This document shows positions 49 through 5,793 of a stretch of DNA of 64,000 bases, piece after piece. Below the pieces are notes generated by a model. That model searched no databases and was not told the DNA's origin. It was given only the letters and a program-made list of their open reading frames with translations. Location of the stretch: the NCBI RefSeq assembly GCF_001294455.1, contig NZ_LIKT01000012.1:1-64000 (forward strand), in the 5' to 3' direction. Numbering within the stretch: position 1 is the first letter of the stretch; each line of letters begins with the position of its first letter. Both the position numbers and the translations under genes were made by a program. Source of the stretch: Phaeobacter sp. 11ANDIMAR09. Lineage in GTDB: Bacteria > Pseudomonadota > Alphaproteobacteria > Rhodobacterales > Rhodobacteraceae.

Positions 49-75
49 GGTGGTTTCAACGGATCGACGCAACAC
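49..75 (+). repeat. IS30 left terminal inverted repeat
   Basis: This 27-bp end begins GGTGGTTTCAACGG and is the exact reverse complement of 1249-1275. The transposase stop codon lies inside it, so the coding region runs into the repeat. Confidence 0.92.
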
Positions 76-1216
76 ATGCGTTAAACCGTTCTGCTGGAGT
101 TTCGTATCCCAGCGTTTTTCGAGGTCGTTCGTTCAGTTGTCTTGCGACTGCGCTGAGCTTTGCCTGACTATGTATCGACAAATCGGTGCCTTTTGGGAAG
201 TACTGTCTCAACAAACGATTTGTGTTCTCGTTTGTGCCGCGCTGCCAAGGTGAGTGTGGTTCGCACAAGAAGACGTCGATGTCAGTGGCTAAGGTGAAGG
301 TCTTGTGACCTGCCATTTCTGACCCCCGGTCCCATGTTAGAGAACGATACAGCTCCTTGGGCAGTTTACGGGATTGTTTGATGAGCGCTTGAATGACGCT
401 GTGGCTGTCTTTGTTGCTAACCTTTGCCAACATCACAAATCGGGTGTTGCGCTCGACCAGTGTGGCAATGAAACTGTTGCTTGATCCTGCGATCAAATCA
501 CCTTCCCAGTGCCCTGGCACAGTCCGATCTTCTACCTCTGCGGGTCGCTCTCGGATCGAAACAGCGTTGTTGAACTTCCCCAAGCCGCTCCGCTTCAACG
601 TGGCATGGCGTGACCGCCTGATGGACCGTGTGGCACGTAAATGCGCCTGTAGTTCCTTCTTTAAGACGCCCCGCGTCTGAATGAACAGGCTCCGGTAGAT
701 CGTCTCATGCGAGATACGTTTGTCTTCCTCATCAGGATGTTCGCGCATCAGCCAGCCTGCGATTTGTTGAGGGGACCACTTACGATGCAGCTTGGTCGAG
801 ATCACCCGGCAAAGATAGTCGTTGCCGATCAGCTTACAGGGCTTTGGACGGTGGGCTCGATCCCAGGCCTTCGCGTCGGACCTGGCTGCACGGTAATCTT
901 TTGTGCTGCCATTGCGAAGAACTTCACGGCAGATGGTTGAAGGCGCCCGATGGAGGCTGCGCGCAATGGACCTCAGCGACTGCTTGGCGACAAGGCCCCG
1001 CGATATCTCTTCCCGCTCACCGAGTGTCAGCGCCAATCGAGACCGCTTCCAGGCTGTTGGTCTGATGCCACCAGTGCGCTCAAGTAGCGGGTAAATTGAA
1101 GACGATGCGCGATCAAACACACGCCCAATCGAGCTCATCGACTCCCCGCGCTGCCATCGATCCCATATCTCCGCCTTCTGCTTCTCTGAGAAAAATATCC
1201 GCTTCCGATAGGCCAT
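56..1216 (-). CDS. IS30-family transposase
   Basis: The 386-residue protein catalyses cut-and-paste or circle-mediated transposition of its own element. The N-terminal 60 or so residues form a helix-turn-helix region, followed by a second DNA-binding segment near residues 65-110. The DDE catalytic domain follows, with the acidic residues visible in GHWEGDLI, LTWDRGSEM and the NENTNRLLRQYFPKG signature typical of IS30. Length is as usual for the family. It occupies nearly the whole element, and the ATG at 1216 is 33 bp inside the right inverted repeat. The frame is intact, with no stop or frameshift. Confidence 0.95.
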   Translation of the reverse strand: MAYRKRIFFSEKQKAEIWDRWQRGESMSSIGRVFDRASSSIYPLLERTGGIRPTAWKRSRLALTLGEREEISRGLVAKQSLRSIARSLHRAPSTICREVLRNGSTKDYRAARSDAKAWDRAHRPKPCKLIGNDYLCRVISTKLHRKWSPQQIAGWLMREHPDEEDKRISHETIYRSLFIQTRGVLKKELQAHLRATRSIRRSRHATLKRSGLGKFNNAVSIRERPAEVEDRTVPGHWEGDLIAGSSNSFIATLVERNTRFVMLAKVSNKDSHSVIQALIKQSRKLPKELYRSLTWDRGSEMAGHKTFTLATDIDVFLCEPHSPWQRGTNENTNRLLRQYFPKGTDLSIHSQAKLSAVARQLNERPRKTLGYETPAERFNACVASIR

Positions 1217-1340: not shown

Positions 1341-1760
1341 TTATATGTCCCGCTTTCCAGACGCTATCAGCCACCACGCGAGCAGCGGAAAACCAATCAG
1401 CTCAAATGCCAGTGATGGAGCAATCGCAGCGCTAAGTATTACCTCAGTGTTCATGCCACTCAGTCGAAACAGACCCGCGATCGCGATCACGGCCGACAGA
1501 GCAATCAGGATTGAGCGAAAACTGCGCATTGCAAAGCCGCCAATCATGAATAAAGCACCGACGCCAAACCAGATCCCACCAATGAACCGTATATGGCTGT
1601 CTTGGGCATTGAATGTTGCAACATCCGTGATCGAAACGAAATCACGCGTCGATTGCCATCCCAGTGTCTTTATCCCGCCTAGGCCAATATTCAATCCCAG
1701 AAAAACGATTGCGGTGCCAACGATCACAACAACCGAGTTCAGCAGGTTTACCTTATTCAT
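1341..1760 (-). CDS. DUF4345 family membrane protein
   Basis: This 139-residue protein has four predicted membrane helices, roughly at residues 7-29, 60-77, 84-101 and 110-132, with a glycine-rich segment (FIGGIWFGVGALFM) in the second. Size and layout match DUF4345, a family of unknown biochemical role in the inner membrane. It is divergent from the TetR regulator at 1886 with a 125-bp shared control region, so it is the likely target of that regulator. I cannot assign a substrate or activity. The family call rests on topology and motif memory. Confidence 0.7.
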   Translation of the reverse strand: MNKVNLLNSVVVIVGTAIVFLGLNIGLGGIKTLGWQSTRDFVSITDVATFNAQDSHIRFIGGIWFGVGALFMIGGFAMRSFRSILIALSAVIAIAGLFRLSGMNTEVILSAAIAPSLAFELIGFPLLAWWLIASGKRDI

Positions 1761-1885: not shown

Positions 1886-2482
1886 ATGGCTAGAACCGCT
1901 GGCAGGCCACCCCGCAGTAAGGCTGAAACTCTGGAGTTCCGTTCAAAGATCGGGAAGCACGCGCTTGATATCTACCGGACGGAAGGCTACGGAGCGGTTT
2001 CCATGCGCCGTCTGGCCAAGGAGGTCGGATGCGCGCCGATGACAATCTACGCTCATTTTGAGGGCAAGACCGATATTCTACGATACCTATGGGCAGACGT
2101 CCTTGCGGACATGTCCAATGACATCGAGACAACGCTGAATTCGGTCGTTGGTGCGCGAGAACGGCTGCAATCAGCTGCACAAACCTTCCTCGCCTATTGG
2201 ATTGACCACCCCGATCATTTTCGACTTGTATTTATGTCCAACGACGTGACGCGGGCGGATGTCAGTAAGTTCGTTATGGACGAAGACACCTTGGCCCACT
2301 TCCGGGTGTTTTCGGGTTTGATCAGAGAGGTTCATCCGGAAAGACATGACGTCAAAGTGAGTTCTGACACGCTCATATCTGGATTGATCGGCATTGCTCT
2401 GTGTATGAACACCGTTGCTGATTACCCATGGTCCAACGCGACCTCGATGACCAACCAGTTACTATCGAGCATCACTGCGTAA
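1886..2482 (+). CDS. TetR/AcrR family transcriptional regulator
   Basis: The 198-residue protein has the N-terminal TetR helix-turn-helix at about residues 20-65, recognisable in SMRRLAKEVG followed by CAPMTIYAHFEGK. A helical C-terminal ligand and dimerisation domain (residues 75-198) resembles the WHG-type TetR C-terminal domains. The ATG at 1886 has a GAAAGGG ribosome site about 8 bp upstream. It is divergent from the DUF4345 membrane gene, and a pair of inverted ACGCGT sites lies between them, suggesting local control of both. The ligand is unknown. The gene belongs to the accessory element. Confidence 0.88.
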   Translation: MARTAGRPPRSKAETLEFRSKIGKHALDIYRTEGYGAVSMRRLAKEVGCAPMTIYAHFEGKTDILRYLWADVLADMSNDIETTLNSVVGARERLQSAAQTFLAYWIDHPDHFRLVFMSNDVTRADVSKFVMDEDTLAHFRVFSGLIREVHPERHDVKVSSDTLISGLIGIALCMNTVADYPWSNATSMTNQLLSSITA

Positions 2483-2595: not shown

Positions 2596-3495
2596 TTAAT
2601 GCTTGAAACAATTCTCTCTGTGCCAGGTTACAAACTCGGTCCTTGGCCGGTTGGCGAGGCGGTCCGGCACCAAGATTTTGCCGGACGAGTTGATCATCGA
2701 TGTCACAGCTTCGATATCGTTGCTTTGTCGGGAAACCAGAATTGTCAGGTCGTCTGCCAACCCTACGAGGCCGCGATCAAACATCCAATGCGCGGTTCCG
2801 GACAGGGCGAGTCCGTTGCTGACAATGTCGGGGCCGTCATGCTCTACAGGTCTGATATGAGCGGCTTCTACTTCAGCGCGGCCACCGCCATTGATCAGAC
2901 GTAAACCAGTGATGGCGCAGCGCTCGCCGTAGGCGCGCAGGACGTTCTTTCTGAAATTGCGATCGCGAACCGCGCGATTGGTCAGCTGGTTGACGCGTTC
3001 CCGTGCGGGCATGTGTTGGAAAGGTGTTTGCGCGTCCTGAAAACCTGGCAACTGCGTCGTGTCGCCCACGCGAGGCAGGATGTCCTCATCTCGCCCAAGT
3101 CCACGTTCGACTATTCGGGCAAAGTCTTCAGTTGAAAGGGTTCTTACCGCGGCTTGCGCGCGTCCAGATATCTTGCCTTGATCGTTCAGCAATCCTCTTT
3201 CGACGATTGAGTTTTCGTCTCGAAATGAAACAGGGTCGCCGAAATCAAGATACGTTCCTGGCTCGATGACCACCAAGAAAATGTCCTGCTTCCTAGGATC
3301 CGGAATGATTTCCTGCACTTTGGCGACAGCAAAACACCCTTTGGTCTCTTTGACCTTGCTTGGCTCTAGGTAGACGATCCAATCCCCTTCGCACTGTTGG
3401 GCACGCGAGAGGTATTGCTTGGGAAACTGATACCGCTCCGAGGGAATGTCGTCGTAGATCGAGTCGCTGCGGTGGATGAAGATACCGAAGGCCAT
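2596..3495 (-). CDS. HNH endonuclease with N-terminal PUA/EVE-like region
   Basis: The 299-residue protein ends in an HNH nuclease domain of the HNH_2 type at about residues 185-255: ERCAITGL, then EAAHIRP, SNGLAL and HWMFDRG supply the expected Cys/His/Asn/His residues. The first 90 or so residues (IPSERYQFP, GDWIVYLEPSK, YLDFGDPVSF) look like a small beta-barrel of the kind that reads modified bases in EVE/PUA-type restriction proteins. That part is my inference. It is the last gene of a three-gene operon, 4 bp after the small membrane gene. A modification-dependent restriction role is plausible; a repair or regulatory nuclease is the alternative. Confidence 0.75.
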   Translation of the reverse strand: MAFGIFIHRSDSIYDDIPSERYQFPKQYLSRAQQCEGDWIVYLEPSKVKETKGCFAVAKVQEIIPDPRKQDIFLVVIEPGTYLDFGDPVSFRDENSIVERGLLNDQGKISGRAQAAVRTLSTEDFARIVERGLGRDEDILPRVGDTTQLPGFQDAQTPFQHMPARERVNQLTNRAVRDRNFRKNVLRAYGERCAITGLRLINGGGRAEVEAAHIRPVEHDGPDIVSNGLALSGTAHWMFDRGLVGLADDLTILVSRQSNDIEAVTSMINSSGKILVPDRLANRPRTEFVTWHRENCFKH

Positions 3496-3499
3496 CGGA

Positions 3500-3796
3500 T
3501 CACCCGCGTTGGAGACGTTCCAGTTTTCGATCGGCCGCGCGTAGGGTCAGCACCGCACCTGTCAAAAATGGAAGTGCCAAGCCAGCCGCAGCAATTGCAA
3601 AAATCATGATGGTGGCCAAAACTGAGTATTCAGCAGTCTGTTGTGCCAATGATAGTCTGCCCAAGCCAATCAGGTAGAACACGCTGGTTCCCAGAAAGAT
3701 CAAGTAAAGCGGGCCAAAGGGTTCGATCACCTCACGGCGGGTGCGCTCCAAGACCGAATGTCGCAACATATTCCAGCGTTTGCTTGCCTTGTTCAC
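3500..3796 (-). CDS. Two-helix small membrane protein of unknown function
   Basis: This 98-residue protein has a basic N-terminus (residues 1-25), a first membrane helix at about 28-48 (LYLIFLGTSVFYLIG), a second at about 60-86 (ATIMIFAIAAAGLALPFL), and a basic tail. Translation starts with GTG at 3796, preceded by an AGGGAG ribosome site that overlaps the end of the upstream XRE gene. Gaps to both neighbours are 4 bp, so the three are almost certainly co-translated. I recognise no family. Small membrane proteins next to nucleases occur in defence cassettes, but nothing here proves that. Confidence 0.65.
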   Translation of the reverse strand: MNKASKRWNMLRHSVLERTRREVIEPFGPLYLIFLGTSVFYLIGLGRLSLAQQTAEYSVLATIMIFAIAAAGLALPFLTGAVLTLRAADRKLERLQRG

Positions 3797-3800
3797 CAGA

Positions 3801-4223
3801 CTACTCCCTTACCAGCTCGATCCATGTGTGCACGTCATCATCCGTCACTTCACGGCCTTCGACATGCGATTGATACCAGCGGGCGATTATGGCCCCGCGC
3901 TTTTCGCTTTTGATTTTTATGCCCTCATCGGTGAGGTGCTTATCCAGCGAGCTTTCGATGTGTTTGAGCGCTTCGAAATCATGCCCAGCCCGAATGGATT
4001 TGGTGCCGAGTAGCAGCCAGGGCACGTCAACCTCGAACCGCTCACCCATCGCGACCAAGGCTTCTACAGGTATTCCGCGCTGGCCCTTTTCGTAGCTGTG
4101 ATACGCGCGGGGTGAGACGCCGATAGCTTCCGCCATAGCCGCTTGTGAGAAGCCGATTTCATTGCGAGCAATGGTGAGACGAGCACCCATTGCAGCAAAA
4201 AGATCAGCATGTTTCTGCGGCAT
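3801..4223 (-). CDS. XRE-family helix-turn-helix regulator
   Basis: From the ATG at 4223 the protein is 140 residues. The HTH_3 domain covers about residues 10-65 (LTIARNEIGFSQAAMAEAIG, then YEKGQRG), and a short C-terminal helical tail follows. An in-frame upstream ATG at 4337 exists, but it would run through the operator-like palindromes, so I prefer 4223. It is the first gene of the XRE/membrane/HNH operon and divergent from the excisionase-like gene at 4379. That is the classic layout of a prophage or island control switch. Two overlapping palindromes lie directly upstream. Confidence 0.85.
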   Translation of the reverse strand: MPQKHADLFAAMGARLTIARNEIGFSQAAMAEAIGVSPRAYHSYEKGQRGIPVEALVAMGERFEVDVPWLLLGTKSIRAGHDFEALKHIESSLDKHLTDEGIKIKSEKRGAIIARWYQSHVEGREVTDDDVHTWIELVRE

Positions 4224-4242
4224 CTGAATTTTCCAATTGACT

Positions 4243-4265
4243 ACTTCGCCGAAGTTCGCGAACTT
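4243..4265. promoter_or_regulatory. Overlapping palindromes, candidate XRE operator
   Basis: AAGTTCGCGAACTT at 4252-4265 is a perfect 14-bp palindrome. Overlapping it, ACTTCG-C-CGAAGT at 4243-4255 is a second palindrome with a one-base centre. Both lie 20-42 bp upstream of the XRE start, in the region shared with the divergent excisionase-like gene. Tight symmetric sites in this position are typical operators of phage-type XRE repressors. Actual binding is inferred. Confidence 0.6.
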
Positions 4266-4378
4266 TGCAAAAAATGACGAACATTTACAGTTAATCCCAT
4301 CTGACCACGTCAGAAGGTGCAGAACAAGCGATTCCATGCGTATCGCCGATTCAACTTAAGCGGACAAGGACAACTGAA

Positions 4379-4726
4379 ATGGCAGAGACCAACTATTCAG
4401 ACAGCTCTCAGATCCTGGGGCTTGGTAAAACGCCTGCGCAGTGGGTCGAAGTCATGGCCGGGATGGGGATCGACATTTCAGAACGCACATTGCGAGAGCG
4501 CGCCAATGAGACCGGCGCTTTTTACCGCCTTGGGCGGACCATGCTCATCACGCCCGCGCAGATTGATACGATTTTTGAAGGAGGCCAGTCATGCCGCTCC
4601 AAATTTACAAGAGGGGCCGTGTCTACTGGGCCAAGGGGTGGATTGAATACAACGGCAGGCCAATCGCCGGCCCATACCGGCGAAGCACTAAGGCATCTAC
4701 AGAAGAAGGCGCACGGGACTGGATAA
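4379..4726 (+). CDS. Excisionase-like small DNA-binding protein
   Basis: The 115-residue frame carries a winged-helix/MerR-like region in residues 8-70: IDISERTLRERANETG followed by FYRLGRTMLITPAQID, the usual wing of excisionase-type proteins. Beyond residue 71 the sequence is low in pattern and overlaps the integrase by 136 bp in another frame. The C-terminal part may therefore be a by-product of that overlap, and the working protein may be only the first 70 residues. It is divergent from the XRE gene and lies directly before the integrase, as expected for a recombination directionality factor. Confidence 0.62.
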   Translation: MAETNYSDSSQILGLGKTPAQWVEVMAGMGIDISERTLRERANETGAFYRLGRTMLITPAQIDTIFEGGQSCRSKFTRGAVSTGPRGGLNTTAGQSPAHTGEALRHLQKKAHGTG

Positions 4727-5685
4727 ACCATGAGACCGAACGGCAAATCCGTCGCTATGTCGTGGGCGACGAACCGAGCAATACGTTCTCCGATGCCATT
4801 ATGCTCTACAACGCTTCGCCTAAGGCAGCGAAGCAGTTGATCCCGATTGTCGAAGCAATCGGCGACCTGTCGCTAGGCGCGATATCTGGTGCGCTATTGA
4901 AGAGCCTTGGACCAAAGCTGAAACCTAAAGCTTCGACCGATACTTGGTGGCGCGAAATCGTGACGCCCGCGAGTGCGGTGATCAACAACGCACACGAGCT
5001 GGAAGGCACGCCTCTGATCCGCGTGAAGCCCTACGACAAGTTCGAGCGGATCGCTCAGGACAAGCGGCGAGGGAAGCTCAGCCGCGTGGAGCGCACGCCA
5101 GCTGACAAGGAATGGATCGAGGCTTTTTGCCGTGCCGCGGATCCATACAATGCCGCGCTGGTCCGATTTATGTTTGAAACGGCTGCACGGATTGATCAAG
5201 CCGTATCATTGGAGCCTGATGACCTTCGACCGCATGAAAACAAAGCCCGTGTAAAAGCGCAGAAGGGCCATTCGGAAAGTTGGATCACCGTCTCCCCTCA
5301 GATGATGGACGAGCTGCTCGCGTTGCCGCCTAAGCGCCCAAAGAACCGGAAGACCGGCAAGCTGATGAAGGCGCGCATCTTCGGCTATGGCAGCTCGACA
5401 GGTTACAACACGCGCTGGAAGACGATCTGCAAGCGCGCGGGCATCCCGTACCTCTCGGCGCACCCGGCAGGACGGCACGGGTTCTTCACCGAACTGGTCG
5501 TGCGCCAAGGGGTCGATCCGGTCACAGCGGCTAAAGCTGGGCGATGGTCAGACCCCAATTTACCCATGCGCATCTATGCCCACGCAGAGACCGATGAAGC
5601 CGACATCAGGGCCCGTTTTCGTACAAACCACGTACAGAATGACGCTGTACAAACACCCAACTCTAAGAAATCACAAAAGGAATAG
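4591..5685 (+). CDS. Tyrosine recombinase (integrase)
   Basis: The 364-residue site-specific recombinase has an N-terminal arm-type domain (YKRGRVYWAKGWIEYNGR), a SAM-like core-binding segment around residues 50-150, and a catalytic domain from about 165. Visible catalytic residues are the Arg in FETAARIDQAV, the Lys in KAQKGHSESW, HPAGRHG (HxxR-H), and GRWSDPNLPMRIYAH with the nucleophilic Tyr. A strong GGAGG lies 6 bp before the ATG. Its stop codon is only about 15 bp from the tRNA-Arg fragment, which identifies that fragment as the attachment site it uses. Confidence 0.93.
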   Translation: MPLQIYKRGRVYWAKGWIEYNGRPIAGPYRRSTKASTEEGARDWINHETERQIRRYVVGDEPSNTFSDAIMLYNASPKAAKQLIPIVEAIGDLSLGAISGALLKSLGPKLKPKASTDTWWREIVTPASAVINNAHELEGTPLIRVKPYDKFERIAQDKRRGKLSRVERTPADKEWIEAFCRAADPYNAALVRFMFETAARIDQAVSLEPDDLRPHENKARVKAQKGHSESWITVSPQMMDELLALPPKRPKNRKTGKLMKARIFGYGSSTGYNTRWKTICKRAGIPYLSAHPAGRHGFFTELVVRQGVDPVTAAKAGRWSDPNLPMRIYAHAETDEADIRARFRTNHVQNDAVQTPNSKKSQKE

Positions 5686-5699
5686 CGTTATGAACGCAT

Positions 5700-5746
5700 C
5701 CCTCCTAAGGGGCAGGTTGCAGGTTCGAATCCTGCCGGGGTCGCCA
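5700..5746 (+). other. Attachment site: 3' fragment of tRNA-Arg(CCT)
   Basis: From the anticodon loop (CTCCTAA, 5702-5708, anticodon CCT) to the CCA end (5744-5746) this is a tRNA 3' half. It has a 3' anticodon strand GGGGC, a T-arm GCAGG/TTCGAAT/CCTGC at 5719-5735 and an acceptor strand CGGGGTC plus discriminator G. No D-arm or 5' acceptor strand precedes it, and the 5' anticodon stem (CATCC) does not pair properly with GGGGC. It therefore cannot be a functional tRNA. The break is in or just before the anticodon loop, a known crossover point for tyrosine integrases. Confidence 0.82.
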
Positions 5747-5793
5747 TTTCGCCAAGTGCCGTTTCGTTCTTTCCAGTCGGGCCTTGGCATAAC

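What the first reader, a model, noticed from the sequence alone, without database searches (positions are those of the whole stretch)
2596..4265. XRE / two-helix membrane protein / HNH nuclease cassette: candidate defence module
Three same-strand genes with 4-bp gaps lie inside a tRNA-integrated element. The first is an XRE repressor with palindromic operators, the second a small membrane protein with no known family, and the third an HNH nuclease carrying an N-terminal part reminiscent of modified-base readers. Repressor-controlled cassettes with a nuclease and a membrane protein are a known pattern of anti-phage systems, but I do not recognise this combination. Whether it defends is not shown by the sequence.
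Basis: partly seen in the sequence, partly recalled or inferred. Interest (0 to 1): 0.7.

Follow-up and report, generated by a model that had tools for sequence, protein, structure and literature searches.

The report
Mobile element's repressor operon carrying defence
Three neighbouring genes turn out to be the control region of a jumping DNA element of marine bacteria, in which a repressor and a small membrane protein travel together while the third gene, here an enzyme likely to cut chemically modified foreign DNA, is one of several exchangeable genes, many of them defence genes.

Summary
In detail: three same-strand ORFs, 4-bp gaps, a palindrome before XRE, a tRNA-derived attachment site. 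The reading "one three-gene defence system" does not. The cassette is the immunity end of an integrative and mobilizable element (IME) in tRNA-Arg(CCT): tRNA, left genes with MobC and relaxase, variable cargo, HNH-TM-XRE | xis-int, attR; 18 whole elements of 7.0-17.9 kb were read. In 295 same-family genomes XRE occurs at 24 places. A small hydrophobic ORF follows it at all 22 that are complete; this HNH gene is next at only 7. Elsewhere the slot holds Mza, Avs3a, type IIG, III or II enzymes or unknown genes. Among 25 near-identical elements a ~300-bp block (operator region plus DNA-binding half of XRE) exists as exchanged alleles (13 A, 11 B, 1 C), as expected of a repressor that sets immunity groups. 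TM divergence follows the XRE C-terminal half more than its DNA-binding half. The N-terminal part of HNH models as an EVE/PUA fold; the top whole-chain match is the EVE-HNH enzyme VcaM4I. Best reading: an IME immunity operon (compare lambda cI-rexAB) with a membrane partner of the repressor and a modification-dependent nuclease in an exchangeable slot. No function was tested.

The parts
2596..3495 (-). EVE-like-HNH nuclease gene (299 aa); catalytic His probably H213 (aligned with VcaM4I H224)
3500..3796 (-). small two-helix membrane protein (98 aa, GTG start), partner gene of XRE; invariant W8, LER16-18, R21, I24, P26 in 16 rows
3801..4223 (-). XRE-family repressor (140 aa): HTH half (1-72) exchangeable, C-terminal half (73-140) conserved
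4013..4312 (.). allele (specificity) block: operator region plus HTH-coding half of XRE; A-B identity 0.62-0.77, adjoining windows 0.92 and 0.96
4252..4265 (.). perfect 14-bp palindrome AAGTTCGCGAACTT, putative XRE operator (core TTCGCGAA kept in most type-A relatives)
4379..4726 (+). excisionase-like gene (115 aa; weak family match), divergent from XRE; last 136 bp overlap int out of frame
4591..5685 (+). tyrosine recombinase / integrase (364 aa)
5700..5746 (+). attR: 47-bp copy of the 3' end of tRNA-Arg(CCT)
1886..2482 (+). TetR-family regulator, cargo of this copy
1341..1760 (-). DUF4345 membrane protein, cargo of this copy
56..1216 (-). IS30-family transposase at the contig end, where the assembly of the element breaks

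Best explanation
This is the immunity operon of an IME that sits in tRNA-Arg(CCT). In the quiet, integrated state XRE binds the operator region between itself and xis, holds xis-int off, and regulates its own operon (inferred from position and the allele block). The small two-helix membrane protein is a dedicated partner of XRE; I think it most likely that it contacts the conserved C-terminal half of XRE and passes on a cell or envelope signal (inferred, weakest step; about 0.45). The operon's last position is a slot for exchangeable genes, often defence genes. Here it holds an EVE-like-HNH nuclease that would flip out and recognise a modified base in incoming DNA and then cut it (fold by model; activity and base inferred). 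Shown: gene order, element ends, exchangeable slot, constant XRE-TM pairing, allele exchange. Not shown: transcription as one unit, DNA binding, mobility, restriction.
For: Element anatomy: tRNA-Arg, a ~290-aa protein, MobC (PF05713 2.7e-06, NikA-like 2e-09), relaxase (PF03432 6.2e-05, 23.7 bits against a cut-off of 24.6), cargo, HNH-TM-XRE | xis-int, attR; 18 whole elements L088-L105. XRE-TM pairing: 24 XRE loci (E<=1e-20) in 295 genomes; TM by profile, or a small hydrophobic ORF at +398 to +428, in all 22 complete ones; the other 2 end at a contig end. An integrase of one of three types lies upstream at all 19 fetched loci, broken in L129. Slot: HNH at 7 of 22; elsewhere MzaB/C/E, Avs3a, type IIG, type III, C5 MTases (one with an MvaI/BcnI-type REase): PADLOC hits in 7 of 8 loci scanned. 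Allele block 4013-4312: 13 A, 11 B, 1 C among 25 elements; within-type 0.94-0.99, A-B 0.62-0.77, next windows 0.96 and 0.92. TM distance tracks the XRE C-terminal half given INT and HTH (partial r 0.66, 0 of 2000 permutations, n=40 of one integrase type; 0.52, 6 of 2000, dereplicated to 16); for HTH given INT and CTD it is 0.01 and 0.07. XRE: 23 of 295 family genomes, 1 of 385 class-wide genomes (the own one), no plasmid match. EVE/PUA fold and VcaM4I as nearest whole chain; the HNH parts align up to the C-termini with VcaM4I.
Against: No expression, binding, transfer or phage data. TM and the XRE C-terminal half are adjacent, so linkage alone could give part of the correlation; over all integrase types the correlation of TM with HTH is also there (0.13, 24 of 2000, n=49; 0.26, 1 of 2000, dereplicated to 25, beside 0.36 for the C-terminal half). 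The cassette can also move as one: L018 carries XRE-TM-HNH behind a different integrase beside a tRNA-Phe, which suits a three-gene unit too. The relaxase match is just under Pfam's cut-off. The HNH model has mean pLDDT 64 (10-residue block means 61-90 over residues 1-130, the HNH core as low as 35), and its whole-chain TM-score to VcaM4I is 0.31 (rmsd 18.3). By ungapped extension of the alignment, VcaM4I's stacking Y130 faces A116, so base specificity may differ or be absent. In 8 of 15 HNH elements scanned, the 1-2 cargo proteins examined had no PADLOC hit.
Confidence: 0.68

Rival explanations
1. A true three-gene defence system: XRE regulates, TM acts at the membrane and HNH is the nuclease that TM recruits or controls.
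For: 34 of 80 loci carry all three; the trio sits on a second integrase type in L018 and, with diverged XRE and TM, on a third in L039, evidently the same contig as G300:C34 (both 225,606 bp).
Against: XRE-TM without HNH at 15 of 22 complete loci; 51 of 60 HNH-bearing family genomes without such an XRE; 53 plasmid records with HNH while XRE has no plasmid match. In the 8 clade-2 elements a gap of 79-102 bp lies between TM and HNH, while XRE-TM stays at 4 bp.
Confidence: 0.1
2. XRE-TM is an immunity-plus-exclusion pair: TM is an effector (superinfection or entry exclusion against related elements or phages, RexB-like) and not a partner of XRE.
For: TM changes fast: 37-47% identity between clades while HNH keeps 81-86%; dN/dS 0.13 and 0.21 in the two clades against 0.05 and 0.06 for HNH and 0.03 and 0.07 for INT (XRE 0.14 and 0.07); two helices, charged ends; position as in repressor-exclusion operons (recalled: lambda cI-rexAB).
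Against: TM follows the XRE C-terminal half more than the immunity (HTH) type; an exclusion protein might rather follow immunity groups.
Confidence: 0.3
3. XRE-TM is a toxin-antitoxin pair (membrane toxin, XRE antitoxin) that stabilises the element.
For: Small membrane protein next to XRE at all 22 complete loci; weak similarity of XRE to antitoxin models, below their cut-offs.
Against: XRE carries exchanged operator-HTH alleles facing xis, the mark of a repressor of the element's own genes.
Confidence: 0.12

Closest known systems
VcaM4I and other EVE-HNH modification-dependent restriction enzymes (PMC7897488: abstract and found passages read)
   Same: Domain order EVE-like then HNH; top whole-chain Foldseek hit (6yex, E 3.4e-07); HNH parts align to the C-terminus, H213 with H224
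   Different: EVE part has no detectable sequence similarity; 14% identity in the Foldseek alignment; the stacking Y130 probably replaced by Ala (inferred); sits in an IME operon
PT-DNA restriction enzymes (NCBIfam NF045808)
   Same: HNH part, residues 172-298, 1.4e-31
   Different: 109.7 bits against a cut-off of 180; N-terminal half not matched
Integrative and mobilizable elements (review PMC5704250: search listing and abstract start only)
   Same: Integrase, excisionase-like gene, tRNA attachment site, relaxase, MobC
   Different: Constant repressor-membrane protein pair with an exchangeable slot and repressor-operator allele groups
Phage immunity operons with exclusion genes (lambda cI-rexAB; recalled). 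Prophage defence genes: PMC6426606, PMC6426596, listing and abstract start only
   Same: Repressor divergent from the recombination genes, followed by a membrane protein gene and a defence gene
   Different: An IME, not a phage; the defence gene is variable; similarity of the membrane protein to Rex proteins was not tested beyond the family libraries

Membership tests
Integrative and mobilizable element | integrase and flanking direct repeats at a tRNA | tested here: met
   Phage_integrase 1e-09; 47-bp repeat of tRNA-Arg(CCT), both ends read in 18 elements
Integrative and mobilizable element | relaxase and accessory mobilisation protein | tested here: met
   MobC and NikA-like above their cut-offs; relaxase 6.2e-05 but 23.7 bits against a cut-off of 24.6; in this genome they lie on contig C5
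Integrative and mobilizable element | no conjugation apparatus of its own | not tested
   no search for conjugation genes was made; most cargo proteins were not scanned
Integrative and mobilizable element | excision and mobilisation observed | not testable with these tools
   needs an experiment
EVE-HNH modification-dependent restriction enzyme | HNH nuclease domain with catalytic residues | tested here: met
   HNH_2 3.3e-09; H213, N227, H236 invariant in 60 rows; H213 aligned to VcaM4I H224
EVE-HNH modification-dependent restriction enzyme | N-terminal EVE/PUA domain | tested here: met
   fold level only: Z 12.6 (2hd9, rmsd 2.8, 124 aligned), 10.8 (2eve, rmsd 2.9, 118 aligned), whole chain VcaM4I; sequence search negative
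[quoted passage not shown]
   ungapped extension of the alignment puts Q114 on Q128 but A116 on Y130; no structural superposition was available
EVE-HNH modification-dependent restriction enzyme | cuts modified DNA only | not testable with these tools
   needs an assay
PT-DNA restriction enzyme (NF045808) | full-length match above the curated cut-off | tested here: not met
   109.7 against 180 bits, residues 172-298 only
Single three-gene defence system | constant co-occurrence of all three genes | tested here: not met
   HNH next to XRE-TM at 7 of 22 complete loci
Element immunity repressor | operator region and DNA-binding domain vary together, the rest constant | tested here: met
   block 4013-4312 in 25 elements
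Element immunity repressor | represses excision genes and confers immunity | not testable with these tools
   needs reporters and transfer assays

The most novel reading that the evidence does not exclude
A family of defence-carrying IMEs in Rhodobacteraceae-type bacteria has heteroimmunity groups: the repressor's DNA-binding half and its operator are exchanged as one block between otherwise near-identical elements, while a fast-changing two-helix membrane protein, co-inherited with the repressor's other half, tells the repressor when to release the element, and an operon slot behind it is loaded with interchangeable anti-phage systems, so that immunity to sister elements and defence against phages are expressed together.
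Probability: 0.4. Interest if true: 0.74.

Novelty: new variant of a known kind. Interest (0 to 1): 0.55.

Why it matters
It suggests how small mobilizable elements could spread defence genes among marine bacteria: one conserved control pair with a plug-in slot. The exchanged repressor-operator alleles predict immunity groups that decide which elements can share a cell, directly testable with reporters. The slot right behind XRE-TM is a marker for finding new defence systems (some slots hold large proteins without a match in the library each was scanned with). The family also offers a diverged EVE-HNH enzyme with possibly different base specificity.

Tried and rejected
Three-gene system: rejected as the main reading after the slot survey. 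Phage origin: 6 viral contigs encode a relative of HNH. L106 carries the same int-xis|xre-TM-HNH set and is an IME by content; L107-L110 gave only HNH hits with six of the window's proteins as queries; L111 is a partial match. The annotated phage set gave 1 partial HNH match. Viral scans with L110, L109 and L108 proteins added no new contig. First HNH model (27 rows) too poor, mean pLDDT 49; replaced by a 60-row one. Sequence search for the N-terminal domain in the PDB found nothing meaningful. PT-DNA restriction enzyme: HNH half only. HNH tree: element copies fall in several places among solo copies, but many deep forks are open, so the number of recruitments is not settled. SRA folds: none in the 50 rows shown, which excludes nothing. 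Literature: eight searches listed no paper on this element family or on an XRE-TM pair with a defence slot, judged from titles, abstract starts and the passages named here; papers outside that library were not searched. In the EVE context survey PMC7641849 only found passages were read: EVE-HNH is mentioned, 'integrase' does not occur. PMC12923530: found passages only, not relevant.

Rows dropped or errors mended: HNH alignment A3 left out L047 (a stop), L065 and L071 of the first list; A4 left out L023, L042, L047, L048, L071, L078 (a stop, or a short match) and most near-copies among L002-L025. In one search, 33 of 34 loci with the trio were given (L016 is cut by its contig); 18 of the 23 genomes with both tRNA copies on one contig were read as whole elements. 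Searches scanned 19 cargo proteins from 15 of 18 whole elements; L094 and L101 (largest ORFs of the same lengths as in L092) were not scanned, L104 in Pfam only. One search scanned 10 proteins from 8 of the XRE loci. In some searches the integrase rows of L135 and L140 were wrong-frame ORFs and those of L130 and L131 too long; corrected, with the same result; L129 (broken integrase) is left out of that test. One search's last line failed (wrong method name); the tree itself was complete.

Full report
What is in the window. Three minus-strand ORFs lie at 2596-3495 (HNH), 3500-3796 (TM) and 3801-4223 (XRE), 4 bp apart. Divergent from XRE are an excisionase-like gene (4379-4726; phrog_1840 0.023, weak) and an integrase (4591-5685; Phage_integrase 1e-09; phrog_1 3e-20). 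At 5700-5746 lies a 47-bp copy of the 3' end of tRNA-Arg(CCT); the window has no whole tRNA. On the other side are a TetR gene, a DUF4345 gene and an IS30 transposase at the contig end.

The element. A scan of one genome per species gave 469 relatives of HNH and kept the best 80. In 34 of the 80 the neighbours are XRE and TM; in 32 of these the same integrase and excisionase follow. L016 is cut by its contig, and L018 has another integrase beside a tRNA-Phe. In the close loci with this integrase homology to the window runs from 5746-5750 (the tRNA end) to 2501-2600, just past HNH. Searching the tRNA in 33 of those 34 genomes placed an intact tRNA-Arg and the partial copy on one contig in 23. 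I read 18 of these as whole elements (L088-L105): repeat distance 7,002 to 17,949 bp; a few others are longer (about 27-33 kb by the positions). Order: tRNA, a protein of about 290 aa with no Pfam or NCBIfam match (a replication-type winged-helix protein in my reading), MobC, relaxase, cargo, HNH-TM-XRE, xis-int, attR. In the window's own genome the tRNA and the left genes are at the end of contig C5, so the middle is not in one piece in this assembly.

Which genes belong together. In the same 295 genomes of the family, TM was found in 16 (E<=1e-3), XRE in 23 (24 places, E<=1e-20) and HNH in 60 (E<=1e-40, some partial), of which 13 are close. Fifteen of the 16 TM places are next to XRE; the sixteenth (G141, L143) is a remnant with a broken integrase, a TM piece and a 41-residue HNH piece. 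Of the 24 XRE places, 5 have TM by profile and were not fetched with flanks here (G000, G085, G145, G237, G292; G000 is the window itself) and 19 were fetched. Of these 19, two end at contig ends, one of them with the first 28 residues of TM; the other 17 all have a small ORF starting 398-428 bp after the XRE start, 13 with two segments and 4 with one segment over my hydropathy threshold. An integrase lies upstream at all 19: 7 of the window's type, 8 of the L018 type (L129's broken), 4 of a third type. HNH is next at 7 of the 22 complete places (G000, G085, G106, G145, G237, G292, G300). Others carry MzaB, MzaC and MzaE (L127), Avs3a (L130), a type IIG enzyme (L139), a type III MTase (L141), C5 methyltransferases (L128, L129, L137, the last with an MvaI/BcnI-type REase) or genes without a clear match. 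So XRE-TM is the constant pair and HNH one occupant of a slot. The two surveys overlap: L039 and G300:C34 are evidently one contig.

Repressor alleles. Among 25 elements with over 93% HNH identity, sliding identity is about the same within and between XRE types everywhere except in five 60-bp windows covering 4312-4013, where A-B identity is 0.72, 0.62, 0.71, 0.77 and 0.63, against 0.94-0.99 within types; the next windows are 0.96 and 0.92. The block holds the XRE-side half of the intergenic region and the HTH half of XRE. In the 11 B elements the HTH half is 69-74% and the C-terminal half 94-99% identical to the window's. That is the pattern of repressor-operator allele exchange by recombination. 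It is the best evidence here that XRE acts on this intergenic region and is the element's own repressor; the function itself is inference.

TM. Two hydrophobic segments, a short N-terminal part with W8, LER and P26 invariant in 16 rows. dN/dS is 0.13 and 0.21 in the two clades (HNH 0.05 and 0.06, INT 0.03 and 0.07, XRE 0.14 and 0.07; XRE's clade-1 value is raised by the HTH alleles). In 40 loci with the window's integrase type its distances follow the XRE C-terminal half after control for integrase and HTH (0.66; 0 of 2000 permutations) and not HTH (0.01; 914 of 2000); after removing near-copies 0.52 (6 of 2000) and 0.07 (474 of 2000; n=16). Over all 49 loci the values are 0.63 (0 of 2000) and 0.13 (24 of 2000); over 25 dereplicated loci of all types 0.36 (0 of 2000) and 0.26 (1 of 2000), so there the contrast is weak (correcting). 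Adjacency is a confounder. I take a physical partnership with XRE as most likely, with exclusion as the main rival.

HNH protein. Only the HNH part is seen by sequence: HNH_2, PADLOC HNH, the PT-DNA enzyme model, TagI, VcaM4I. The model from 60 rows has block means of pLDDT 61-90 over its first 130 residues. Foldseek's best is VcaM4I (3.4e-07, though with a whole-chain TM-score of 0.31), then MJECL36 and PH1033; VIA gives Z 12.6 and 12.4 (PH1033), 12.1 (MJECL36) and 10.8 (2eve), proteins that I recall as EVE-family, and 9.9 to VcaM4I, with the first ASCH and YTH rows at 9.7 and 9.6. In VcaM4I the EVE domain flips 5mC or 5hmC into a pocket of P24, W82 and Y130 (PMC7897488). Here the matching stacking residue seems to be Ala, so I would not assume the same base. 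HNH relatives occur without this XRE in 51 of 60 HNH-bearing family genomes and in 53 plasmid records, 47 of them Rhizobium, Sinorhizobium or Agrobacterium (XRE has no plasmid match). Three solo loci (L036, L043, L046) have a different HTH ORF about 260 bp upstream. So the enzyme probably does not need this XRE or TM.

Cargo of HNH elements. Nineteen proteins from 15 of 18 elements: 7 elements have PADLOC hits at 1e-10 or better (Upx with a weak type II REase match, Avs3a twice, PtuA beside one Avs3a, Dsr1 with PDC-S49, Avs2, an Aga/Avs2-like protein, an RT-Toprim); 8 have none. Pfam shows a hydantoinase in L098, a sensor kinase in L104 and STAND-like ATPase matches below their cut-offs in L099. 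The islands are rich in defence genes but not purely so.

Spread. XRE at E<=1e-15 was found in 1 of 385 class-wide genomes, the own one (only a few others of the same family are among them), and in no plasmid at E<=1e-15, so the pair appears confined to this family's elements as far as sampled.

Verdict. Ordinary parts (integrase, repressor, restriction-type nuclease, defence cargo) in an arrangement that my eight literature searches did not show: an IME immunity operon with a plug-in slot, and repressor-operator allele groups.

Noticed in passing
4591-4726: xis and int overlap by 136 bp in different frames. Fourfold-degenerate int positions differ at 0.061 in the overlap against 0.39 in the rest (other 45-codon windows: minimum 0.25), and the xis frame is intact in 25 of 25 elements: good evidence of dual coding.
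   Followed up: yes
L018:3452-6900: The XRE-TM-HNH cassette (HNH 95% identical) sits behind a different integrase beside a tRNA-Phe: the operon moves between integrase types.
   Followed up: partly
L106: A viral-collection contig whose first 3.5 kb carry int-xis|xre-TM-HNH: an IME rather than a virus, at least in part.
   Followed up: partly
L143 (G141): Deletion remnant of such an element: broken integrase, TM piece, 41-residue HNH piece, no XRE.
   Followed up: partly
L124:5581-9041, L126:8980-13083, L140:5672-7399: Proteins of 330 and 823 aa (L124), 1367 aa (L126, weak nSTAND3 match) and 575 aa (L140) behind XRE-TM with no clear family in the one library each was scanned with: candidates for unknown defence systems.
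   Followed up: no
L098:7355-10957: A hydantoinase/oxoprolinase (1200 aa) as cargo in one of these elements: metabolic genes also ride along.
   Followed up: no
L129, upstream of XRE: The integrase of this XRE-TM element is split into two ORFs, so this copy may no longer move.
   Followed up: no
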